48,493 bases of DNA. Origin: Solirubrobacteraceae bacterium. Its GTDB lineage: Bacteria; Actinomycetota; Thermoleophilia; Solirubrobacterales; Solirubrobacteraceae. The stretch lies in contig JANJTP010000001.1 in the NCBI GenBank assembly GCA_024711025.1, positions 1 to 48,493 of the forward strand, read 5' to 3'. The stretch's first letter is position 1; every line of letters starts with the position of its first letter. The notes under the pieces are model-generated. The model did not search any database, was not told where the DNA came from, and was given only the letters and a program-made list of their open reading frames with translations. The position numbers and the translations under genes were made by a program. Shown in pieces: positions 2,369-15,949 of the stretch.

Positions 2369-5300
2369 TCAGCGCTCCGCCGCCGGGCACATGATCCGGT
2401 AGTCGCACATCGCGCACACCGACGGGCTCGGCGTCGGCTCGAAACCCTGCGCGCGGATCCCGTCCGCGACCTCGAGGACCGTCTCGGCGATCCAGTCGCG
2501 GTCGACGTCGTCGGACGGGACCGGCACCTTCTGGTCGTCGAGCACGTACAGGTAGCTCTGGGCCCGCGACTCGACGTCCCACGCCTCACGGGCCGCGAGC
2601 GCGTAGAGCGAGAGCTGCACGTCGTCGCGCAGCTGCTCGCGGCTCTTCGGGCGGCCGGTCTTGTAGTCGATCAGCTCGTAGCCGCCGTCGGGCAGGCGGT
2701 CGACCCGATCGACCCGTCCGCGCAGCGTGTGCGGCCCCATCCGGAACTGGAACGAGCGCTCCAGCCAGACCGGCTCGCCGTCCTCCTCCGCGCGGCGCGC
2801 GACGTAGCGGCGCAGCGCCGCCTCCGCCTTCGCGCGAAGCTGGCGCTCCTCGTCGCCGGCCCCGAAGCCGCTGCGACGCCAGCCGGTGTCGAGCAGGCCG
2901 AGCAGCTCGTCGAGCGACCCGCTCCCCGCGTGGTGGTAGCGCTCCAGCACCTGGTGGACGACGATCCCGAACCGCTGGTTCAGCGTCGGCTCGCTGGGGA
3001 TCCGGAAGACGCGCGCGAACTTGTAGCGCAGCGGGCAGCTGCGGTAGGTCTCGATGTCCGAAGCGCTCAGCAGCAGACCCTCGCCCCGGCGCGGCAGGAA
3101 CGCCTCGAGCGACGGCTCGGCGCGGCGGGCGATCGCCGCGGCGCGCGCGCCGGCGTCGCGCTCGGCGGCGACGATCACGTCGTCCAGCGGGCTCGACTCC
3201 AGCACCTCCCGCTGCTGCGCGGTCGTCACCTGTGAGAGGACCGCACCCACCTGGGCGAGCGTGTCGGCGACCGGCTGCCCGTCGCGCCGGCCGATGACCG
3301 CCGCGAGCTTGACCAGCTCCAGGTATCGCACGACCCCGTGCGTGATCTCCAGATCGGTGTCGAGCCGCAGCTCGCCGAGCGCGCCGGCAATCCGCGGCAC
3401 GTCGCGCAGCAACTCGTCGCGCAGCTCGGTGAACGCCGCATGGAGCGCCTCGTCCGGGCCGAACAGCTCCTCGGCCCGCTCCTCCCACGGCGCGGCCAGC
3501 GCGGCGCGCGCCTGCTCGACGAACGGTGACGGAGACTGCCGCGCGCCGCGGTCGGTTCGCTCGACGAAGGCCAGGACGAGCGACTTCCGAGCGCGTGTCA
3601 GCGCCACGTGCAGCAGGCGGGCCATGGCCTGTGCGTGCGCGGCGCGCGGGTCGCCGAGGAGGTCGTCGTGGCGAAGCTCCGCCGGGATCGGATCCGCGGC
3701 GACGCGCTGCGCGCCCGGCATTCGCGAGGACTGCAGGCCGAGTGCCAGCACGTGATCGAACTCGCGGCCCCTCGCGGCGTGCATTGCGAGCACCTCGACG
3801 GCGGCGGCTCGTGCCTCGACCGGGGCCTCCTCGTCGGGTAGCCCCGCCTCCGCGACCGCCGGAAGGTGCCGCGCGAACTCGCGCCCGGTCGCCTGCGGCG
3901 AGCGGCGCGCCTCACGGGCCGCCAACTCGCCCAGCCGGGCGAGCGAGACGAGCCGCTCGACGACGTCCGCCTGCGCGCTGAAGAGCTGCTGGCGGCGCAG
4001 GCCGAGGCGGTCGATCAGCCGGTGGACGAACAGGTCCGGCCGGGTGTCGAGCTGAGCCGCGATCTGCCGGTGCAGCTTGAGGAACGCGAGGACCCGCTCG
4101 CGCGCCTCCGGCGGCAGCTGCGGGGACTCCGTCGCGGCGACGAGCGCGGAGACCATGTCGAGCTTGCGCCTGCGGGCGATCTGGACGACGCGCGCCACGT
4201 CGACCGAGCGCAGCTCGACCGGCGGCCGCGACAGCGCTCGCACGACGGCGCTGGCGTCCCCCGAGTCGACGAGCAGCCGCAGCCAGGCCAGCACGTCCTT
4301 GACCTCGGCGCGGTCGAACAGCTCGGCCGCACCCGACAGCCGGTAAGGGACGGCCCGCTCCTCGAGCGCCGCCGCGACGGCCCTGCCCTCCTGGCGGACC
4401 GAGCGAACGAGGACGGCGATCCGGCCCGGCTCCGCTCCGGCGCGGACGAGCCGCTCGGCCTCGGCGGCGGCGGCCTGAGCCTGCGCCCGCGAGCTCGTGC
4501 AGCGCCAGAACGCCACCGAGCCGCCCGCCCGCGCCGCGTCGGGCTCGGTCGCCGTCGTCGCGTCGCGCTGGTCGGCGACGACGGCTCGTGCGGCGCGCAG
4601 CACCCGCTCGGGCGCGCGCAGCGAGCCGTCCAGCCGGATCGTCGTCGCGTCCGGCAGTCGATCGGCGACGTCGAGCAGGCTCGTCCCGGCGGCCCCCCGG
4701 GCCGTCGAGATCTCGCTCAGCGGATCGCCCGCCGCCGTCAGCCCGCGGTGCTCCGACGCCAGCGCGAGGACGAGCTGAAGCGGTCCGGGAGCGAGGTCCT
4801 GCGCGTCGTCGACGAGCACGTGGGCGACGCGCCGGCACACGCGGGCGCGCACATGCGGGCGCCGGAGCAGCTCGAGCGAGAGCAGCACGAGGTCTCCGTG
4901 GTCGAGCGCCCCCTGCTCGCGCAGCATGCGGTCGTGGGCGCGGAAGACCTCGGCGAACTCGCGCTCACGGCCCGCGGCGGGATCGTCGTCCGGAAGCTCC
5001 GCGGCCCAGGCGGCGAACCGCTCGACGTCCACCAGCGACTTCTTCATCGCGTCGATCCGCCCGAGCACTTGCGCGAGCAGGGCGCCGGGGTCGCCGCGGA
5101 AGTCGTGCAGGCGCAGGGTCAGCTCGTCGACGCGCTCGAGCAGCATCGCCAGCCGATCGGCGGGCGAGAGCACGACGACGAAAGGATCCAGCCCCGCCTC
5201 CGCGGACTCGTCGCTGAGCAGCCGCGTGCAGAAGCCGTGCACGGTGTGGACGTGGAGCTCTCCGAACCCGCCGTCGACGCTGCGCTCGACCTCGGCGCGC

Positions 5301-5503
5301 AGGGCTCCGGCCGCGGCGACCGAGTCCGTCAGCGACAGGACCGACCCAGGCTCGAGCCCTCCCGCCCCGGCCAGCCAGGCGTGGCGCGCGGCGAGCGCCC
5401 ACGTCTTGCCGCTGCCCGCCTCGCCGAGCACGAGAAGCGGTCCGTCGGCGTGCGTCGCGACCTCGCGCTGACGCGAGGTGAGGCCCTCGAGCGGATCCCG
5501 CAC
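2369..5503 (-). CDS. UvrD/Rep-family ATP-dependent helicase with C-terminal PD-(D/E)XK Fe-S nuclease domain (AddAB/AdnAB-like)
   Basis: This 1044-residue SF1A helicase-nuclease should unwind and resect DNA ends in recombination or repair. Visible motifs are the Q-motif-like LTSRQREV, Walker A GEAGSGKT (27-34), Walker B DDAQD, and motif VI-like HVALTRARKSLV. The C-terminal RecB-type nuclease starts near LSASDIETYRSCPLRYKF and has the catalytic IDYKTGRPK. The single Cys in that helix plus the end cluster CAMCDYRIMC give the four cysteines of an AddB-type iron-sulfur staple. Mycobacterial AdnA/AdnB are each built this way and work as a pair; no partner gene lies in this window. The GTG start at 5503 has a Shine-Dalgarno-like AGGAG only 1 nt away, so a leaderless start is more likely (see the shared promoter entry). 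Confidence 0.85.
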   Translation of the reverse strand: MRDPLEGLTSRQREVATHADGPLLVLGEAGSGKTWALAARHAWLAGAGGLEPGSVLSLTDSVAAAGALRAEVERSVDGGFGELHVHTVHGFCTRLLSDESAEAGLDPFVVVLSPADRLAMLLERVDELTLRLHDFRGDPGALLAQVLGRIDAMKKSLVDVERFAAWAAELPDDDPAAGREREFAEVFRAHDRMLREQGALDHGDLVLLSLELLRRPHVRARVCRRVAHVLVDDAQDLAPGPLQLVLALASEHRGLTAAGDPLSEISTARGAAGTSLLDVADRLPDATTIRLDGSLRAPERVLRAARAVVADQRDATTATEPDAARAGGSVAFWRCTSSRAQAQAAAAEAERLVRAGAEPGRIAVLVRSVRQEGRAVAAALEERAVPYRLSGAAELFDRAEVKDVLAWLRLLVDSGDASAVVRALSRPPVELRSVDVARVVQIARRRKLDMVSALVAATESPQLPPEARERVLAFLKLHRQIAAQLDTRPDLFVHRLIDRLGLRRQQLFSAQADVVERLVSLARLGELAAREARRSPQATGREFARHLPAVAEAGLPDEEAPVEARAAAVEVLAMHAARGREFDHVLALGLQSSRMPGAQRVAADPIPAELRHDDLLGDPRAAHAQAMARLLHVALTRARKSLVLAFVERTDRGARQSPSPFVEQARAALAAPWEERAEELFGPDEALHAAFTELRDELLRDVPRIAGALGELRLDTDLEITHGVVRYLELVKLAAVIGRRDGQPVADTLAQVGAVLSQVTTAQQREVLESSPLDDVIVAAERDAGARAAAIARRAEPSLEAFLPRRGEGLLLSASDIETYRSCPLRYKFARVFRIPSEPTLNQRFGIVVHQVLERYHHAGSGSLDELLGLLDTGWRRSGFGAGDEERQLRAKAEAALRRYVARRAEEDGEPVWLERSFQFRMGPHTLRGRVDRVDRLPDGGYELIDYKTGRPKSREQLRDDVQLSLYALAAREAWDVESRAQSYLYVLDDQKVPVPSDDVDRDWIAETVLEVADGIRAQGFEPTPSPSVCAMCDYRIMCPAAER

Positions 5504-5523: not shown

Positions 5524-6372
5524 ATGGCAGAGCTCGGGCTCCCCGATCACGAATGGCTCGGCATGTGCCGTCGCAGCGCCGAGGGCGTGCTCCGGCTGCT
5601 CGCCGCGAGCGCTCCGGGGCGCGGGCGCCTCGAGGAGACCGGCCAGGTGGGCAGCGGCGGCGACCGGACGCTCGTCATCGATCGCGACGCCGAGGACGTC
5701 GTGCTCACCGAGCTCGAGCGCCTGTACGACGCGGGTGCGCGCTTCACCGTGATCACCGAGGAGCGCGGGATCGTCGACTTCGGCGGCGGGGACCTGCTCG
5801 TGATCGTCGACCCCATCGACGGCTCGCTCAACGCCAAGCGGGGTCTGCGCCACCACGCCCTCTCGATCGCCGTCGCGGACGGGCCGACGATGGCGGACGT
5901 CGCGTTCGGCTACGTCTACGACGCGGGCCCGCGCGAGGAGTGGCGGGCGCGCCGAGGCGTCGGCGCGTGGCTCGACGACGCGCCGCTGCGCGACGTCCCG
6001 CCCGAGCGGCGACGGCCGGACGGGCGCCTGGAGATAGTGGCGCTGGAGGCGGCGCGCCCGCGCCACCTCGCGGCGAGCTCAGCGGCCCTCGAGGCACACG
6101 TACATCGCGTCCGGGCGATCGGCGCAGTGGCGATCGCCCTCTGTCAGGTCGCCGCCGGACGCGTCGACGCGATGGCCTCGCTGGCGCCGTGTCGCTCGGT
6201 CGATGCGGCGGCGGCACAGCTCGTGGTACGCGAGAGCGGCGGGCTCGTCGCCTTCACGACCTGCGACGAGCCGCTCGGCGCGCCGCTGGCCGATCTGCGC
6301 GCGCTCTCCCCGGTCGTCGCCGCACGCACCGCGCGCGGGCTCGCCGACGTGAGCGCGCTGCCCGTCTCCTGA
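5524..6372 (+). CDS. Inositol monophosphatase / FBPase superfamily phosphatase
   Basis: The 282-residue product is a Li+-sensitive-type Mg2+ phosphatase. It shows GGDRTLVIDRDAE (45-57), the metal-binding EE of TEERG (79-80), and DPIDGSLNAKRG (96-107) with the two catalytic aspartates. Near residue 225 is a degenerate third site, RSVDAAAAQLVVRESGG, where the usual Trp-Asp reads Val-Asp and the AAG reads AAA. Substrates in the family include inositol phosphates, fructose 1,6-bisphosphate and PAP; the exact one is unclear. Archaeal-type bifunctional IMPase/FBPase is an alternative. It is divergent from the helicase gene and monocistronic. Confidence 0.85.
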   Translation: MAELGLPDHEWLGMCRRSAEGVLRLLAASAPGRGRLEETGQVGSGGDRTLVIDRDAEDVVLTELERLYDAGARFTVITEERGIVDFGGGDLLVIVDPIDGSLNAKRGLRHHALSIAVADGPTMADVAFGYVYDAGPREEWRARRGVGAWLDDAPLRDVPPERRRPDGRLEIVALEAARPRHLAASSAALEAHVHRVRAIGAVAIALCQVAAGRVDAMASLAPCRSVDAAAAQLVVRESGGLVAFTTCDEPLGAPLADLRALSPVVAARTARGLADVSALPVS

Positions 6373-6439
6373 GCACGATCGACGGCGCGAGGCGCCCGCG
6401 CTCTCATCTGTCTCAGGGCCATGGCGCGACCAGGGCGCG

Positions 6440-6455
6440 CGGCGGCGCGCCGCCG
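6440..6455. terminator. GC hairpin after the phosphatase gene
   Basis: CGGCGGCGCGCCGCCG is a 16-bp perfect palindrome about 67 bp downstream of the phosphatase stop and upstream of the LexA-box promoter. It could end phosphatase transcription. It has no T tract. Confidence 0.4.
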
Positions 6456-6500
6456 TCCCGCATGATCGCTGTGCATTTGCCGGTGCGAACACCCGTACGT

Positions 6501-6530
6501 CGAACATCTGTTCGCGCGACGTGCTACGGT
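6501..6530 (+). promoter_or_regulatory. LexA-type SOS box overlapping a promoter
   Basis: CGAACATCTGTTCG at 6501-6514 has perfect inverted arms CGAAC/GTTCG around four bases, the core of the Gram-positive and actinobacterial LexA operator. A -10-like TACGGT lies at 6525-6530. A 17-bp spacer puts the -35 position at about 6502-6507, inside the box. The only gene it can control is the coiled-coil protein starting 35 nt downstream at 6565. Confidence 0.65.
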
Positions 6531-6564
6531 GTGTCAACCGCATTCCACAGAGAGGTTGGTCGCC

Positions 6565-7047
6565 ATGGCCGAGAAGACCACACCCACCCGTAAGAGCGCA
6601 GAGCGTGCCAGTGCCGAGGGCGCCGCGAAGACCGCGGCCGCTCGATCGACCGCGGCACGCAAGGCCGCTGTGACCCGCGGCGTCCATCGCACGGAGGCCG
6701 CAGCCGACAAGGTCAGCGTCGATCGTGGCGCGCTGCGCGCCGACAACCAGCGGCTCGTCGAAGCCGTCGTATCGACCGGCCGCTCCGTGATCGGTCTCGC
6801 CGGCAACTACGCCGAGCGCGCCGCCGACGTGCAGGTCGGCGCCGTGCTGACGGCGACCGACGCCGTCGGCGGGACGATCGTCGACCTTCGCGCCAGGCTC
6901 GGCAGCCGCCAGACGGCCGAGGTCGAGCTCCGCAGGCTCGAGCGTCGCGGCGAAGCCGCGCGCCGCCGGGCTCGACGCGAGGCCGGGCGCACACGTGCCC
7001 GCATCGAGAGCGAGCTTCGCCGCCTGACGCCTCTGCCGGGCGCCTGA
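6565..7047 (+). CDS. Basic Ala/Lys-rich coiled-coil protein, phasin- or histone-H1-like
   Basis: The 160-residue product has an N-terminal 45 residues of Lys/Ala/Arg/Ser repeats resembling the H1-like or HbhA C-terminal tails of actinobacteria. A predicted long helix follows (about 65-120, with the apolar patch VEAVVSTGRSVIGLAGNYAER typical of phasin-like helices), then a highly basic helical tail rich in RR. The ATG at 6565 follows AGAGAGG; the upstream in-frame ATG at 6529 lies within the promoter. It could coat PHA granules, tether them to DNA, or bind nucleic acid. The LexA box upstream suggests a DNA-damage role. Its last codons and stop lie inside a 20-bp tandem repeat. Confidence 0.7.
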   Translation: MAEKTTPTRKSAERASAEGAAKTAAARSTAARKAAVTRGVHRTEAAADKVSVDRGALRADNQRLVEAVVSTGRSVIGLAGNYAERAADVQVGAVLTATDAVGGTIVDLRARLGSRQTAEVELRRLERRGEAARRRARREAGRTRARIESELRRLTPLPGA

Positions 7048-7080
7048 CGCCTCTGCCGGGCGCCTGACGGCCTCCGCGGG
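7021..7080. repeat. 20-bp tandem repeat containing the stop codon
   Basis: CGCCTGACGCCTCTGCCGGG occurs exactly at 7021-7040 and 7041-7060, with a diverged third copy at 7061-7080 and a fragment after it. The first copy is read through in frame by the coiled-coil gene; in the second copy the shift of 20 bp brings its TGA into frame as the stop codon at 7045-7047. Confidence 0.9.
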
Positions 7081-7224
7081 CGCCTCGTGTTACCCGCCGG
7101 CCGGCCGGGCCGGGCCGCTGTGGTCCGCGCCATCGGCCGGCCGCGGGCGTCGCGATTCGGTCCGCGGCCGCTCGTCGGGGGATGGCAGTCCGATCATCCA
7201 GATCGGATTTGCGACAATGGTCCG

Positions 7225-8379
7225 ATGCCGACGCGTGACGAGATCATGAAGGCCCTCGAGGTTGTCATCGACCCGGAGCTGAGGCGCTCGATCGTCGAGC
7301 TCGGCATGGTTCGCGACATCGTCCAGCACGACGACGGCGCCGTCGACGTGACCGTCTCGCTGACGACGCCCGGCTGCCCGATCCGCAGCCACTTCGAGAC
7401 CGCGGTCGCCAAGGCCGTCAGCGGGCTTGAGGGCGTTACGCGCGTCTCGGTGACGTTCGACGTGCTCAGCGAGCAGGAGAAGGGCGACCTCCAGAAGAAG
7501 CTCGGCCGCAGCTCGCTGCCTGCCGGGGCGCTCGCCCAGGTCTCGAACGTCGTCTGTATCGGCTCCGGCAAGGGCGGCGTCGGCAAGTCGACGATAACCG
7601 CGAACCTCGCCGCCGCGCTCGCGGCCGATGGCAGGCGAGTCGGCGTGCTCGACGCCGACGTCTGGGGCTACTCGATCCCGCGCATGTTCGGCACCGGTGG
7701 GCGCCCGCCCGTCTCGGCCGAGCGCAAGATCCTGCCGCTCGAGGCGCACGGCGTGAAGGTGATGTCGATCGGCTTCTTCGTCGAGGAGGACGCCGCCGTC
7801 GTCTGGCGGGGGCCGATGCTCCACAAGGCCCTGGGTCAGTTCCTCGAGGACGTCGAGTGGGGTGAGCTCGACGTGCTGCTCGTCGATCTGCCGCCCGGCA
7901 CCGGCGATGTCGCCATGACCCTCGCCCAGATGCTGCCACTGGCGAGGTTCGTCGTCGTCACGACGCCGCAGCCGACGGCCCAGCGGGTCGCCCGCAGGTC
8001 GGCCGAGATGGCCCATCGGGTCGACCTCGACGTCGCCGGCGTGATCGAGAACATGGCCGGCTTCGTGACCCCGGACGGAGAGCGCTACGCGATCTTCGGC
8101 GAGGGCGGTGGCCAGGAGCTCGCCGACGAGCTCGACGTCCCGCTGCTCGGCAAGGTGCCGCTCACGATGCCGTTGCGCGAGCAGTCCGATGCCGGCGTGC
8201 CGCTGGTGCTCGCCGACCCGGACGATCCCGCCAGCCAGGCGATCCGCCATGTCGCTCGGGGGCTGCAGGCGATGTTCCCGGTCGAGCTGCCGGTGCTCCA
8301 GGCGACCGGTAGCCCGGGCGCCCATGGGGGGCCGGGCGAGGGGCCCACGCCGCTCGGCATGAGCCTGCCGATGGCATAA
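7225..8379 (+). CDS. mrp: Mrp/ApbC-type iron-sulfur cluster carrier ATPase
   Basis: The 384-residue product is a P-loop scaffold/carrier that delivers Fe-S clusters to apoproteins in the cytosol. An N-terminal MIP18/DUF59 domain (about 1-80, with TPGCPIRSHFE) is followed by the NBP35/ApbC ATPase with the deviant Walker A GKGGVGKST (near residue 115), DADVWGYSIPR and LLVDLPPGTGD. The CxxC of many Mrp proteins is not visible in the C-terminal part (it reads IENMAGFVTPDGERY), so cluster binding may differ. The ATG at 7225 was chosen because the DUF59 domain begins directly there; there is no Shine-Dalgarno sequence. It stands alone. Confidence 0.92.
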   Translation: MPTRDEIMKALEVVIDPELRRSIVELGMVRDIVQHDDGAVDVTVSLTTPGCPIRSHFETAVAKAVSGLEGVTRVSVTFDVLSEQEKGDLQKKLGRSSLPAGALAQVSNVVCIGSGKGGVGKSTITANLAAALAADGRRVGVLDADVWGYSIPRMFGTGGRPPVSAERKILPLEAHGVKVMSIGFFVEEDAAVVWRGPMLHKALGQFLEDVEWGELDVLLVDLPPGTGDVAMTLAQMLPLARFVVVTTPQPTAQRVARRSAEMAHRVDLDVAGVIENMAGFVTPDGERYAIFGEGGGQELADELDVPLLGKVPLTMPLREQSDAGVPLVLADPDDPASQAIRHVARGLQAMFPVELPVLQATGSPGAHGGPGEGPTPLGMSLPMA

Positions 8380-10818: not shown

Positions 10819-11044
10819 GCCCCGCCGGGCGGCGGCGCTTCGCCCGGCGCGCCACCGCGTCGCCGGGCCGGCTGCGGCCGGGCGGTAGGGCCGGCGAGAG
10901 CCTTGGGCGAACGGTCGGGCCGAGGCGTCGGCGGGCGGACACGACCGTCTGGCCCGGCAGCGAAATCCCCCGCAATGCAACTGAGCGCTCTATGGTGGAG
11001 ACACGTCGTCGGCGGTGACAAGGAAGGCAGCCGGAGGTCGGCAG

Positions 11045-11464
11045 ATGAGCGACGCGAGCCCCGATGAGCAGGTGCGACGCCTGTACGAGGAGGCGGAGGG
11101 CCGTACGGCGGAGGCGATGGAGCAGCTCGTCGGCGGCCACGGCTTCGGCGAGCTCCTTGCGCGCACGACGGAGAACGTCGTCGCTTTGACGCGGATCGGC
11201 GCCGACGTCGGCGATCTCGTGCTGCGCAACCTGCGGATCGTCGGGCGCTCCGACATCACGCGCCTGGCGCGCCAGCTTGGGCGCACCGAGGACAAGCTGG
11301 AGCGAGTGCTCCAGGAGGTCGAGGCGCTGCGCGACGAGCTGCGTGAGCAGCACGTCGCCGGCAGCCGCCCCGCCGCGAAGGACGAGCGGCGCGCCGGCGC
11401 CGGCTCTCTGGCGGCAACGGAGCCCGTGCCGCCGGGGAGGGGCACGCGTCGGAGCGGGCGATGA
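11045..11464 (+). CDS. PHA synthase accessory subunit, PhaE/PhaR-like (inferred)
   Basis: The 139-residue acidic-then-basic helical protein has a central hydrophobic helix around LVLRNLRIVGRSDITRLARQLGRTEDKLERVLQEVEALRDEL (residues about 63-103), ending in a coiled coil. A disordered Ala/Arg-rich tail follows. Class III and IV PHA synthases need a helical partner (PhaE or PhaR) encoded next to phaC, and this gene overlaps phaC by ATGA. I infer that role from position and architecture, as the sequence is much shorter than known PhaE. GGAGG is 7 nt before the ATG at 11045, which favours it over the GTG at 11015. A -10-like TATGGT lies at 10991-10996. Confidence 0.6.
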   Translation: MSDASPDEQVRRLYEEAEGRTAEAMEQLVGGHGFGELLARTTENVVALTRIGADVGDLVLRNLRIVGRSDITRLARQLGRTEDKLERVLQEVEALRDELREQHVAGSRPAAKDERRAGAGSLAATEPVPPGRGTRRSGR

Positions 11465-12513
11465 GCGTTCTGTCCGGCCTCGCACGGCTCCCGTGGGCCG
11501 CGGTCGAGACGGCGAACATCCTGCTGACGACCGATGACGCCCGCATCGCCGTCACGCCTCGCGACCCCGTCTGGACCCATCGCAAGACGACTCTCTACCG
11601 CTACCGGTCGGCCGACCGTCGCCATGCCGTGCCGCTGCTGCTTGTCTTCGCGCTGATCAACCGGCCCCATATCTTCGACCTGCGGCCCGGCCACTCGCTC
11701 GTCGAGTTCCTGCTCTCCGAGGGGTTTGACGTCTACCTGCTCGACTGGGGCGTCCCCGACGACGAGGACGCCGACACCGGGCTCGAGCACTACGTCTGCG
11801 ATGCGCTTCCCTGGGCGATGCGCGAGGTCCTGCGCTCGTCCGGCGCCGAGGAGCTGACGCTCGTCGGCTGGTGCATCGGCGGCACGCTGTGCGCGATGCA
11901 CGCGGCGCTCGCAGGCGCCGACAGCCCGGCACGCAACCTCGTGCTGCTGACGACGCCGATCGACACGAGCGACTCGCTGTACGCGCGCTGGGTCGGCATC
12001 GATGCGTTCGACGTCGATGCGGTCGCCGACGCGTGGCCGTCCGTCCCGGGGCGCGCGATCGACTTCGCGAACAAGACGATGAAGCCCGTGACGAACTTCT
12101 GGACCGTCTACCGACGGCTGGCCGAGGGGGTGTACGACGGCACCGCGAGCCGCGAGGCCTATCAGGCGATGGCCAAGTGGGTGGCCGACAACCCACCGTT
12201 CCCGGCGCGCGCCTACCGCGAGTGGATCACATGGATGTACAAGGAGAACCGGCTCGTCCACGGCCTGCTGAGGATGCGCGGCCGGCCCGTCGACCTCGGT
12301 CGCCTGGAGCAGAACCTGCTGGTCATCACGGCCGGCGCGGATCACATCGCACCGCGCTCGAACACGGTCCCGCTGCTCGACCTGGTCGGCAGCGAGGACA
12401 TCACGCACTTCGATCGTCCGGGCGGACACATCGGGCTGATCGCGGGCTCCCGCGCCCGTCTGGAGATCTGGCCCGAGCTCGCGGGATGGCTCGCCGAGCG
12501 CTCGGAGCGCTGA
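11461..12513 (+). CDS. phaC: Class III-type polyhydroxyalkanoate synthase
   Basis: The 350-residue alpha/beta-hydrolase-fold enzyme polymerises 3-hydroxyacyl-CoA into PHA on the granule surface. The lipase-box-like GWCIGG places the catalytic Cys at 138, with Asp in AGADHIAP (294) and His in GGHIGL (323). The length matches class III/IV catalytic subunits (about 355 residues) rather than class I (about 590). The start overlaps the stop of the preceding helical protein (ATGA), so the two are probably translated together. A reductase gene follows 21 bp later, making a synthesis operon. Confidence 0.92.
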   Translation: MSVLSGLARLPWAAVETANILLTTDDARIAVTPRDPVWTHRKTTLYRYRSADRRHAVPLLLVFALINRPHIFDLRPGHSLVEFLLSEGFDVYLLDWGVPDDEDADTGLEHYVCDALPWAMREVLRSSGAEELTLVGWCIGGTLCAMHAALAGADSPARNLVLLTTPIDTSDSLYARWVGIDAFDVDAVADAWPSVPGRAIDFANKTMKPVTNFWTVYRRLAEGVYDGTASREAYQAMAKWVADNPPFPARAYREWITWMYKENRLVHGLLRMRGRPVDLGRLEQNLLVITAGADHIAPRSNTVPLLDLVGSEDITHFDRPGGHIGLIAGSRARLEIWPELAGWLAERSER

Positions 12514-12534
12514 TCCTCGGAATCGGAGGAGAGA

Positions 12535-13350
12535 ATGGTCACTCAGACAGAGCACGAAGCCGGACCGACGGGTGACAAGCTCGACGGCCGCGTCGCGTTC
12601 GTGACGGGCGGCAGCCGCGGCATCGGCGCGGCGATCTGTCACAGCCTTGCCGCCCAGGGGGCCGTGGTCGCCGCCGGCTATCACGCCGGGCGCGAGGAGG
12701 CGGAGCGGATCTGCCGCGAGCTCGAGCGGCTCGGCGTCGCCGCCTCTGCCCACCAGGGCAACGTCGGGTCGGCAGATGACTGCCGGCGCACCATCGGTGA
12801 GGTCATCGAGCGCCACGGACGGCTCGACATCCTCGTCAACAACGCCGGCATCACCGCCGACAAGACCGTGCTGAACCTGACCGACGAGGACTGGTACAAG
12901 GTGATTGCGGTGAACCTATCGGGCGCCTTCTTCATGTCGCAGGCGGTGCTGCCGCACATGCTCGAGCGCGGATCGGGCCGGATCGTCAACATCTCCTCGA
13001 TCATCGGTCAGCGCGGCAACATCGGGCAGGTCAACTACGCGGCGTCGAAGTCGGGCCTGTTCGGGCTGACGAAGTCGTTCGCCCGCGAAGCGGCCTTCGC
13101 GCTCAAGCGCGCGGGAAAGGATCAGAGCGGGCTGGGCGTGACCGTCAACACCGTGGCGCCGGGCTACGTCGAGACGGAGATGGTGCAGTCGGTTCCCGAG
13201 AAGGCGCTCGACCGGATTCGTGCGCAGATCCCGCTTGGGCGGCTCGGGCAGCCTGAGGAGATCGCTCGGGTGGTCCACTTCCTGTGCGCCGACGGCTCCT
13301 CCTACATCACCGGACAGGTGTGGGGGGTCAACGGCGGGATGGACATGTGA
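12535..13350 (+). CDS. phaB: Acetoacetyl-CoA reductase-type short-chain dehydrogenase (PhaB/FabG-like)
   Basis: The 271-residue classical SDR has TGGSRGIG (near 24-31), NNAG, the catalytic Ser in NISSI, and YAASK. It would use NAD(P)H to reduce acetoacetyl-CoA to (R)-3-hydroxybutyryl-CoA, the PHA precursor; FabG-type acyl-carrier-protein activity is the alternative. An extra 12-15 residues with KRAGKDQSG sit between the active-site helix and VTVNTVAPG compared with usual FabG proteins. CGGAGGAG lies just before the ATG. It is the third gene of the phaE-like/phaC operon; no thiolase (phaA) is nearby. Confidence 0.85.
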   Translation: MVTQTEHEAGPTGDKLDGRVAFVTGGSRGIGAAICHSLAAQGAVVAAGYHAGREEAERICRELERLGVAASAHQGNVGSADDCRRTIGEVIERHGRLDILVNNAGITADKTVLNLTDEDWYKVIAVNLSGAFFMSQAVLPHMLERGSGRIVNISSIIGQRGNIGQVNYAASKSGLFGLTKSFAREAAFALKRAGKDQSGLGVTVNTVAPGYVETEMVQSVPEKALDRIRAQIPLGRLGQPEEIARVVHFLCADGSSYITGQVWGVNGGMDM

Positions 13351-13360
13351 GCGACTCGTC

Positions 13361-13726
13361 GTGACCGATCCTGCGTCCCCGCTGGGGGACTTCATCCGCC
13401 GGCAGCGAGAGCTCCAGGAGCTCTCGCTGCGGCAGCTCGCCGATCTGGCCGGCATATCGAATCCCTATCTCTCGCAGATCGAGCGCGGCTTGCGCGAGCC
13501 GTCCGAGCGCGTCGTCGACGCGCTCGCCCGGACGCTCGAGGTCTCGGCGGACACGCTCTACGAGCAGGCCGGCCGTACGCGCCGCGCACAGGGCGACGAG
13601 AACGAGGGGGAGCCGCAGGTCGTCACCGCGATCAAGGCCGACGGCGCGCTCACTGCGCGCCAGCGGCAGGCGCTGCTCGAGGTCTACGAGGCCTTCACGG
13701 CCCGCGGGCGCCGGGGCCGAAGCTGA
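13361..13726 (+). CDS. XRE-family helix-turn-helix regulator
   Basis: The 121-residue product has an N-terminal HTH_3 domain, with LGDFIRRQRELQELSLRQLADLAGISNPYLSQIERG covering helices 1-3, then a short linker and a C-terminal helix (ALTARQRQALLEVYEAF). GTG at 13361 is the first start compatible with the domain and follows the reductase stop by 10 bp, so it is probably co-transcribed with the PHA operon. I infer a regulator of PHA genes; the phasin palindrome at 15982-16018 is a candidate target. Its last 43 bp overlap the 3' end of the opposite-strand phaC-like gene. Confidence 0.8.
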   Translation: MTDPASPLGDFIRRQRELQELSLRQLADLAGISNPYLSQIERGLREPSERVVDALARTLEVSADTLYEQAGRTRRAQGDENEGEPQVVTAIKADGALTARQRQALLEVYEAFTARGRRGRS

Positions 13727-14874
13727 GAGCGCTCGGCGACCTGAGCCATCAACGGCGTCCAGTGATCGCGTAGCGAGGCGTGTCCCATGAACAGGCCGAG
13801 ATGGCCGCCGGGGGCGATTCGCCTGGTCACCTGTGCGGGCGGGGTCGAAGCATGCTCGGCGAGCTCGAAGACCTGCGCAGGCGGCGTGATGTGGTCGGTC
13901 TCTCCGGCCAGCAGGTAGAGCGGCACCGCGATCTCCGAGAGCCTCAGCCGCCGCCCGTCGACCTCGATTCGCTCCTTGATCAGCAGGTTGTCGCGAAACA
14001 GCTTCTCGACGATCCACAGGTAGAAGCGCCCCGGGATGTCCTGGGTGTGCTTGAACCAGTCCTCGAACTCGCGGTAGCGCCGGACGTGCTCCTCGTCGTG
14101 GATGTTCGCGAGCAGCGTGATCTGGCGCTCCACCTCGTTCTGTGGGCGCAGCGCGATGAAGCCGCGGATCATCTCCTCGCCGCGCAGCACCCCGCCCCCC
14201 GCGGCGACGAGCGTCTCATACAGGGCGAGCGACCCGCCCGGTGTGCAGCTCTCCACCCAGCGGTGGATCACCGGCTCCCCGGCATGGAAATCGATGGGCG
14301 CTCCGGCGATCGTCAGCGTGTTCACGGCGTCAGGCGCCAGCGCCGCGAACATCGTGGCCAGCCAGCCGCCCTGGCAGTCGCCGACGAGGTTGACGTGGCC
14401 GCCGAGGTCGTCGACCGCGCGTCCGACGACGGCGAGGTAGTCGGCGATCCCCGCATCCTTCGTCTCGGTGCGGGCGCCGATCCAGTCGAGCGTGAAGACT
14501 CGAGGCAGCCCTGCCGCGCGGATCGTCTGCATCTGGCTCTGCTGCGCGTTGTAGTCGACGATGCACGAGTCGTGGCCGGCCTGCGGCGGCAACACGAGCG
14601 TGGGCACGACCCGCGCACGCGACCCCTGGCTGAAGTCGCGCAGGCGTGCGACGCCGGCCTCCCAGACGACCTCGTTCGGCGTCGACCACGACGGGCGCTC
14701 GCGCCGGGTCGCCGTCCGCCACCAGCGGCACGCGTCGACCACGACCTCCACCGGCGTGGCGTGACGGCGCAAGGCGCCGGCCCAGTACTCGGTCAGCCCG
14801 GTGAGCGCGCTCTCCCATGAGCCGGCCATGTCATCGACGATGATGGGCCCGACGGGAGCCGACGCGCAGGTCAT
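13684..14874 (-). CDS. PhaC-family alpha/beta-hydrolase (second PHA synthase-like protein)
   Basis: The 396-residue product has a PhaC-style catalytic set: Cys in GDCQGG (167), Asp in AGETDHITPP and His in PGGHLGLFMG. It is distinct from the class III protein encoded nearby and has no helical partner. A long N-terminal region with WWRTATRRERP precedes the hydrolase core. It could be a polymerase with other chain-length preference or an intracellular PHA thiolase/depolymerase-like enzyme. Start choice is uncertain: ATG at 14874 or at 14829 (MAGSWE), neither with a Shine-Dalgarno. It is divergent from bdhA with 31 bp between starts and overlaps the XRE gene tail to tail. Confidence 0.75.
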   Translation of the reverse strand: MTCASAPVGPIIVDDMAGSWESALTGLTEYWAGALRRHATPVEVVVDACRWWRTATRRERPSWSTPNEVVWEAGVARLRDFSQGSRARVVPTLVLPPQAGHDSCIVDYNAQQSQMQTIRAAGLPRVFTLDWIGARTETKDAGIADYLAVVGRAVDDLGGHVNLVGDCQGGWLATMFAALAPDAVNTLTIAGAPIDFHAGEPVIHRWVESCTPGGSLALYETLVAAGGGVLRGEEMIRGFIALRPQNEVERQITLLANIHDEEHVRRYREFEDWFKHTQDIPGRFYLWIVEKLFRDNLLIKERIEVDGRRLRLSEIAVPLYLLAGETDHITPPAQVFELAEHASTPPAQVTRRIAPGGHLGLFMGHASLRDHWTPLMAQVAERSQLRPRRPRAVKAS

Positions 14875-14905
14875 GACGGATATCTGATCACGGGAGGATG
14901 ACGGC

Positions 14906-15652
14906 ATGTTCACGAATCGGCGGGCCGCGCTCGTCACCGGAGCCGCATCCGGCATCGGACGGGCGATCGCGGAGCGCCTGGAAGCCGACGGGATCGATGT
15001 CCTGGCGGTCGATCTACGGCCCGACCCGGATGGGCCCGGCGTGCCCTGCGCCGCTGATCTCACGACGCGCGAGGGCAACGGCGACGCGGTCCGCGAAGCG
15101 CTGGAGCGCTTCGGGCGGCTCGATGCGATCATTCCCAGCGCCGGCTTCCAGCACGTCTCGCCGATCGGCGAGTTCGACGAGGACCGCTGGGACGAGCTCG
15201 TGGCGCTGCTGCTCACCTCGCCCTTCCTGCTGGCGCGCTACGGCTGGGATGCGCTCGCGGCGTCCGGTGCGGGGCGGTTCGTCGCGATCGCGTCGGTTCA
15301 CGGCGTCGTCGCCTCGCCGTTCAAGGCCGGCTACGTCTCGGCCAAGCACGGCGTGATCGGGCTTGTACGCACGCTCGCCCTGGAGGGCGCCGCGCACGGC
15401 ATCTCGGCGACGGCGCTGTGCCCCGGCTATGTGCGAACGCCGCTGATCGAGCGACAGATCAGCGCGCAGGCCCGCGCTCACGGGCTGCCGGAGGATCGGG
15501 TGCTCGAAGAGGTGATCCTCGAGCCACACGCGGTCAAGCGGCTCATCGAGCCGCAACAGGTCGCCGACGTCGTGGCGTTCCTCCTCGGCCCGAGCGGGGC
15601 GCCCTTCACGGGCGCCCCGCTCGTCATGGACCAGGGCTGGACGGCGCGCTGA
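14906..15652 (+). CDS. bdhA: 3-Hydroxybutyrate dehydrogenase
   Basis: The 248-residue SDR oxidises (R)-3-hydroxybutyrate to acetoacetate with NAD+, the step after PHA depolymerisation. It has TGAASGIG (11-18) and the family-diagnostic HGVVASPFKAGYVSAKHG with YxxxK, which separates 3-hydroxybutyrate dehydrogenases from FabG-like enzymes. One oddity is that the usual NNAG reads PSAG. GGGAGG lies 9 nt before the ATG. Its place in the PHA island supports a mobilisation role. Confidence 0.87.
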   Translation: MFTNRRAALVTGAASGIGRAIAERLEADGIDVLAVDLRPDPDGPGVPCAADLTTREGNGDAVREALERFGRLDAIIPSAGFQHVSPIGEFDEDRWDELVALLLTSPFLLARYGWDALAASGAGRFVAIASVHGVVASPFKAGYVSAKHGVIGLVRTLALEGAAHGISATALCPGYVRTPLIERQISAQARAHGLPEDRVLEEVILEPHAVKRLIEPQQVADVVAFLLGPSGAPFTGAPLVMDQGWTAR

Positions 15653-15664
15653 GGCGCCGCCGGG

Positions 15665-15949
15665 CTACTTGATCAGCTCGCGGGCGGCGCTCGTGTAGGC
15701 GCCGGTGAGCTCGCGCGTCAGGCCGGCGTGGGCGGACGCGGTGGAGGCGACCCAGTCGATCTTCGTCGCGCCGGCGACCTTCTCCTCGAAGTCGGCGTAG
15801 CGGGCGGCGGCCGTGTCGACGGCGTCGAGGTAGGCGGCGCTCAGCTTGCGGCCGGCGTCTGCGACCTTCTCGTTGAAGTCGAGCACGCGCTCGGCGGCCT
15901 CGGCGACCGGCTCGGCGAACGGGCTCTCGGGCTTGACGGCGGTGGCCAT
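15665..15949 (-). CDS. Phasin-like PHA granule protein
   Basis: The 94-residue protein is almost wholly helical and amphipathic, as expected of a small phasin. It has a Pro-rich start, ERVLDFNEKVADAGRKLSAAYLDAVD as a first helix and further Ala-rich heptads to the end. AAAGGAG precedes the ATG at good spacing. It meets bdhA tail to tail (12 bp apart), and its promoter carries a strong palindrome. I infer that it coats PHA granules; the family is too divergent for sequence alone to prove this. Confidence 0.7.
   Translation of the reverse strand: MATAVKPESPFAEPVAEAAERVLDFNEKVADAGRKLSAAYLDAVDTAAARYADFEEKVAGATKIDWVASTASAHAGLTRELTGAYTSAARELIK

What the first reader, a model, noticed from the sequence alone, without database searches (positions are those of the whole stretch)
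6501..7047. LexA-type SOS box in front of a phasin/H1-like coiled-coil protein
CGAACATCTGTTCG overlaps the -35 position of a promoter whose only downstream gene encodes a basic, Ala/Lys-rich coiled-coil protein. SOS control of such a protein is not usual and suggests a nucleoid-protecting or DNA-tethering role during damage.
Basis: partly seen in the sequence, partly recalled or inferred. Interest (0 to 1): 0.62.

Follow-up and report, generated by a model that had tools for sequence, protein, structure and literature searches.

The report
SOS-controlled histone-H1-like coiled-coil protein
A small, strongly basic protein found in one order of soil and freshwater bacteria sits behind a DNA-damage (LexA) switch that has been conserved across dozens of genera, which points to an undescribed DNA-damage-response protein that probably binds the chromosome.

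Summary
CGAACATCTGTTCG (6501-6514) is a perfect actinobacterial-type LexA site, with a second near-perfect site abutting it (6486-6499), in front of a 160-aa basic protein gene (6565-7047). The same genome has LexA, and its lexA, imuB-like, dnaE2 and uvrA genes carry the same box. The gene family occurs in 189 of 232 searched genomes of the order (Solirubrobacterales, by named relatives) and is nearly confined to it. A box with at most one mismatch lies just upstream in 69 of 79 loci and 29 of 34 genera, against 6 of 414 control windows. lexA itself bears the same box in 26 of 28 genomes.

The protein has a Lys/Arg/Ala-rich N-terminal tail, a conserved ~80-aa helical domain and a basic coiled coil. 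It matches no Pfam or NCBIfam family. 'Phasin' is not supported: 26 of 42 near-complete genomes with the gene have no recognisable PHA synthase. Best reading: a LexA-repressed, H1-like chromosome-binding protein made during the SOS response. The regulation is well supported; DNA binding and function are inferred. Damage induction was not tested.

The parts
6501..6514 (+). LexA-type SOS box CGAACATCTGTTCG (perfect match to CGAACN4GTTCG)
   Evidence: conserved upstream in 69/79 orthologous loci
6486..6499 (+). second, abutting LexA-like box CGAACACCCGTACG (1 mismatch); tandem boxes 15-16 bp apart also in L021, L031 and L200
6525..6530 (+). presumed -10 element TACGGT; with CGAACA (6501-6506) as -35 the spacer is 18 bp; in close relatives the same position reads TACTCT/TACAGT
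   Evidence: sequence; promoter alignment
6565..7047 (+). SOS-controlled H1-like coiled-coil protein, 160 aa, ATG start
6565..6798 (+). N-terminal basic Ala/Lys/Arg-rich tail (about residues 1-78)
6799..7023 (+). conserved helical domain (A2 profile; YAER..VQVGAVL ... LERRG ...)
   Evidence: G000:C47:6799-7023, E 8.4e-27
7225..8379 (+). mrp/NUBPL-type Fe-S carrier ATPase, conserved downstream neighbour (synteny marker, not claimed as part of the unit)
5524..6372 (+). inositol monophosphatase-family gene, conserved upstream neighbour (synteny marker)

Best explanation
The gene is a member of the LexA (SOS) regulon of Solirubrobacterales. In undamaged cells LexA sits on the box(es) over the -35/spacer region and keeps the promoter closed. 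When RecA filaments trigger LexA self-cleavage, a small, very basic protein is made. Its Lys/Arg/Ala-rich tail and basic coiled coil bind DNA without sequence specificity, while the conserved helical domain makes it self-associate or bind a partner. The result would be bridging or compaction of the nucleoid, or holding of broken or stalled chromosome regions, during repair. Shown: the box, its position, its conservation, LexA in the genome and the shared box at lexA and other SOS genes. Inferred: repression, induction, DNA binding, oligomerisation and the compaction role.
For: Box conserved in 69/79 loci, 29/34 genera and three of four families sampled, against 6/414 control windows. Identical motif at lexA in this genome and in 26/28 relatives. 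Own-genome box set contains an imuB-like gene, dnaE2 and uvrA, classical SOS genes. G231 (genus g54) lacks the box both at lexA and at this gene, as expected if LexA specificity changed or was lost. In most relatives the box overlaps a TTTACA -35-like hexamer and precedes a TAnnnT -10. Motif agrees with the LexA ChIP-seq/SPR consensus tCGAAC-N4-GNNCGa of Streptomyces venezuelae (PMC9380542). Protein: pI 10.4-12, tail net charge mostly +10 to +21, coiled-coil C-terminal half. KPAA-type H1-like tails bind DNA in AlgP/PhaF (PMC9239181).
Against: No expression, LexA-binding or DNA-binding data. The box is missing in f3 (0/3), although f3 has lexA with a normal box, and in single members of f1, f2 and f4, so SOS control is not universal. 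The structure models are of low confidence overall (pLDDT 67-69) and the window model has no PDB match. The conserved domain has a moderately hydrophobic helix that does not obviously fit a pure DNA-binding role. The window copy has the weakest tail (net charge +7) and a shorter C-terminus than its relatives.
Confidence: 0.6

Rival explanations
1. LexA-controlled, but the protein acts at the envelope or division site as an SOS checkpoint factor (works like SulA, YneA, DivS or ChiZ), the basic tail being only a localisation or charge feature.
For: Lineage-specific SOS-induced small proteins are often division inhibitors (general knowledge). The conserved domain has a moderately hydrophobic helix (AVLIPVGAALIA). 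C-termini of orthologues end in small nonpolar residues (LSLV, KLAA, KVTA), which could serve as protease tags for a short-lived product.
Against: No transmembrane-strength segment: best 19-residue hydropathy mostly 1.1-1.7, maximum 1.96. No LysM domain matched. The strongly basic tail fits DNA better. The gene is next to mrp, not to lexA or division genes.
Confidence: 0.2
2. It is a phasin or granule-tethering protein (works like PhaF or AlgP), linking PHA or polyphosphate granules to the nucleoid, with SOS control as an added layer.
For: H1-like tail plus helical domain resembles PhaF/AlgP architecture with the order reversed; PHA-synthase-like genes lie 4.4-8.2 kb downstream in this window; one of 25 members hits PF05597 Phasin at E 0.01.
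Against: 26 of 42 near-complete genomes with the gene have no PHA synthase by PF07167 or relaxed TIGR01836, including three of the same genus. No family-level match to phasins. A polyphosphate role was not tested.
Confidence: 0.12
3. The box is a fixed promoter palindrome bound by another regulator, not LexA.
For: No binding data; f3 keeps LexA and its box at lexA while losing the box here.
Against: Same 14-bp motif at lexA, an imuB-like gene, dnaE2 and uvrA of the same genome and at lexA across the order; co-absence at lexA and here in G231.
Confidence: 0.05

Closest known systems
LexA regulon of actinobacteria (Streptomyces venezuelae ChIP-seq/RNA-seq, PMC9380542)
   Same: Same operator core CGAAC-N4-GNNCG, same core genes (lexA, dnaE2, uvrA)
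   Different: The text searched there has no mention of 'nucleoid', 'histone' or 'coiled', and the target table read lists no such gene; its recA has a box, whereas recA of this genome has none upstream
PhaF / AlgP of Pseudomonas (H1-like tail plus helical domain; PMC9239181)
   Same: Lys/Ala-rich DNA-binding-type tail joined to a helical, probably oligomerising domain
   Different: Tail is N-terminal here, no shared domain found by family scans, no PHA linkage, LexA box present
Deinococcus DdrC (damage-induced, DdrO/IrrE regulon; PMC8533742)
   Same: Lineage-restricted, small, damage-regulon protein; DdrC is a DNA-binding/compacting protein (compaction from general knowledge)
   Different: Different regulator and unrelated sequence as far as known (not compared here)
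RecN-dependent DNA supercompaction in the E. coli SOS response (PMC12462666)
   Same: Shows that chromosome compaction is part of a known SOS response
   Different: RecN is an SMC-like ATPase; this is a small basic coiled-coil protein without a nucleotide-binding domain
Mycobacterial HbhA (helical domain with Lys/Ala-rich tail; from memory, not tested)
   Same: Similar composition and helical domain
   Different: HbhA tail is C-terminal; not known as an SOS gene; no comparison was run here

Membership tests
LexA (SOS) regulon | LexA-type operator in the promoter | tested here: met
LexA (SOS) regulon | Cognate LexA in the genome, with the same operator at lexA | tested here: met
LexA (SOS) regulon | Operator conserved at orthologues | tested here: met
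   69/79 loci, 29/34 genera; absent in f3
LexA (SOS) regulon | RecA/LexA-dependent induction by DNA damage | not testable with these tools
   needs RNA-seq/ChIP
Phasin (PF05597/PF09361/PhaP) | Significant match to a phasin family model | tested here: not met
   (best 0.01 in 1 of 25 members for PF05597; NF047773 phas_rel 0.036)
Phasin (PF05597/PF09361/PhaP) | Co-occurrence with PHA synthase | tested here: not met
   absent in 26/42 genomes with the gene
Histone H1-like / PhaF-AlgP type basic tail | Disordered Lys/Ala-rich tail with high net positive charge | tested here: met
   weakest in the window's own copy, whose tail the model draws as low-confidence helix
Histone H1-like / PhaF-AlgP type basic tail | DNA binding | not testable with these tools
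   needs gel shift or ChIP
SOS division inhibitors (SulA/YneA/DivS/ChiZ) | Membrane segment or FtsZ-interacting fold | tested here: inconclusive
   no strong transmembrane segment; no known family match

The most novel reading that the evidence does not exclude
A LexA-regulated, order-specific nucleoid protein family (H1-like tail, new helical domain, coiled coil) that remodels the chromosome during the SOS response, for which the session's searches found no described sequence relative.
Probability: 0.5. Interest if true: 0.72.

Novelty: new variant of a known kind. Interest (0 to 1): 0.58.

Why it matters
It adds to the SOS regulon of a large, barely studied bacterial order a protein type that is not usual there: a histone-H1-like chromosome protein rather than a repair enzyme, polymerase or division inhibitor. 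If it compacts or bridges DNA, chromosome packaging becomes a LexA-programmed step of the damage response outside Deinococcus. The family has no Pfam or NCBIfam model, and the prediction is directly testable in cultured Solirubrobacterales.

Tried and rejected
Close relatives of P0001 in viral contigs: none. Rfam in 6300-7300: none. Sigma-70 promoter/terminator scan: none. Profile against PDB sequences: only weak hits, best E 0.057. Foldseek of the window model against PDB: no match. The second conserved match about 108 bp further upstream in genus g18 (CGAACGCATGTTCC) was read as incidental: it lies in the 3' end of the zincin gene (L030), where the bases would spell Glu-Arg-x-Phe in one frame; I read this by eye and did not compute it. 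A PHA-granule role as the conserved function was rejected. Remnants of the missing C-terminus behind the stop were sought; none convincing was found.

Full report
Observation. The window lies in a 3.14-Mb, 72-contig genome (contig C47). CGAACATCTGTTCG is at 6501-6514 and is the only exact CGAACN4GTTCG in the window. Directly before it, with one base between, stands CGAACACCCGTACG (6486-6499), one mismatch from the same pattern. The reading frame that follows starts best at ATG 6565 (GAGAGG shortly upstream) and ends at 7047: 160 aa, pI 11.5. The longer GTG start at 6529 in the ORF list would sit inside the promoter.

Same genome. CGAACN4GTTCG occurs at 10 places against 3 for the reversed pattern. 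LexA is encoded at C29:447 and its own gene has CGAACACGTGTTCG shortly before its ATG. The other sites include one in front of an imuB/DNA-polymerase-Y-like gene (C29:5302; the protein hits DNA polymerase IV models), one in front of an error-prone dnaE2 (C29:8721) and one before uvrA (C20:3507). One more abuts the start of an HTH-domain gene (C13:975). Four remaining sites (C6, C14, C53, C56) fall inside or beside called coding regions and were not pursued. recA has no box upstream. The motif agrees with the LexA consensus measured in Streptomyces venezuelae, tCGAAC-N4-GNNCGa (PMC9380542).

Orthologues. A profile of the conserved domain (A2) finds the gene in 189 of 232 genomes of the order, in four families. 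Named relatives are labelled Solirubrobacterales, Solirubrobacteraceae or Thermoleophilaceae, with some labelled only Actinobacteria. In the class-wide search every listed genome with a hit belongs to the same order. In 396 phylum-wide genomes 24 had a hit, of which 23 are in this order and one is marginal, E 7e-5. The neighbourhood is conserved: inositol-phosphatase and/or a zincin-like gene upstream, mrp downstream, and a UvrD-like helicase with a PD-(D/E)XK domain divergent further upstream.

Phylogenetic footprint. Of 79 non-duplicate loci, 69 have a box with at most one mismatch in the 500 nt before the domain: f1 56/59, f2 6/7, f4 7/10, f3 0/3; 29 of 34 genera. The same criterion on 414 other 500-nt windows of the same loci gives 6. 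These loci are related by descent, so the counts are not independent events, but the operator persists while the four middle bases and the rest of the promoter vary. In many relatives the arrangement is TTTACAAACAnnTGTTCGnTGnTAnnnT: the box overlaps the -35 and fills the spacer, a repressor position. lexA carries the same box in 26 of 28 genomes examined. In genus g54, G231 has no box at lexA or at this gene, and G229 has only a weak match inside the lexA coding region; the locus of this gene in G229 was not fetched. f3 keeps the lexA box but has lost it here. A second, non-syntenic copy in G002 also has a box; those in G195 and G167 do not. Tandem boxes 15-16 bp apart occur here and in L021, L031 and L200.

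Protein. Layout: an Ala/Lys/Arg-rich tail of variable length, a conserved domain of about 80 aa with invariant or near-invariant E84, V91-G92-A93-x-L95, L122, E126, R128-G129 and E148 (window numbering), and a basic coiled coil often ending VQERxxSLV. It has no Pfam or NCBIfam match; scans of 25 members give only scattered coiled-coil-type hits. Models of the window protein and of L030 show long helices with a short break in the conserved domain; the L030 tail is drawn disordered, the window tail as low-confidence helix. Overall confidence is low and the window model has no Foldseek match in the PDB.

Function. DNA binding is inferred from charge and from the reported DNA binding of KPAA-type tails of AlgP and PhaF (PMC9239181). 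The phasin reading was tested by co-occurrence: 26 of 42 near-complete genomes with the gene show no PHA synthase by PF07167 or relaxed TIGR01836. The two PHA-synthase-like genes in this window (11461-12513 and 13684-15216) are therefore probably coincidental neighbours. A precedent for SOS-linked compaction exists in E. coli RecN (PMC12462666). A division-checkpoint role remains possible and is listed as a rival.

Verdict. The chromosome-binding role is a reasonable but untested inference (about 0.6 for the whole explanation).

Noticed in passing
G000:C4, recA (L195): recA of this genome has no LexA box upstream, although lexA, an imuB-like gene, dnaE2 and uvrA do.
   Followed up: partly
L021-L027, L029, L031, L032, L034, L041, about 32-42 nt before the start codon: A palindrome TTAGTTCTAA/TTAGAACTAA lies in the 5' leader of these orthologues, close after the presumed -10; absent in the window. 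Possibly a second operator.
   Followed up: no
window 7024-7068: The stop codon of the window gene lies in two tandem copies of a 20-bp unit plus a partial third; the protein is shorter at its C-terminus than its relatives.
   Followed up: partly
window 11015-15949: Cluster of two PHA-synthase-like genes and small coiled-coil ORFs that may be phasin-like or PhaR-like (the small ORFs have no NCBIfam match).
   Followed up: partly
G229, G231 (genus g54), lexA loci L188 and L194: lexA lacks the usual box in its promoter, suggesting changed LexA specificity or loss of autoregulation in this genus.
   Followed up: no
G000:C13:975 (L012:350-988): An HTH-domain gene beside dnaG starts right at a perfect CGAACACTAGTTCG; possibly another SOS gene.
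   Followed up: no
window 2369-5503 (-): UvrD/Rep-type helicase with a C-terminal PD-(D/E)XK nuclease domain, divergent from the inositol-phosphatase gene; the arrangement is kept in many relatives.
   Followed up: no
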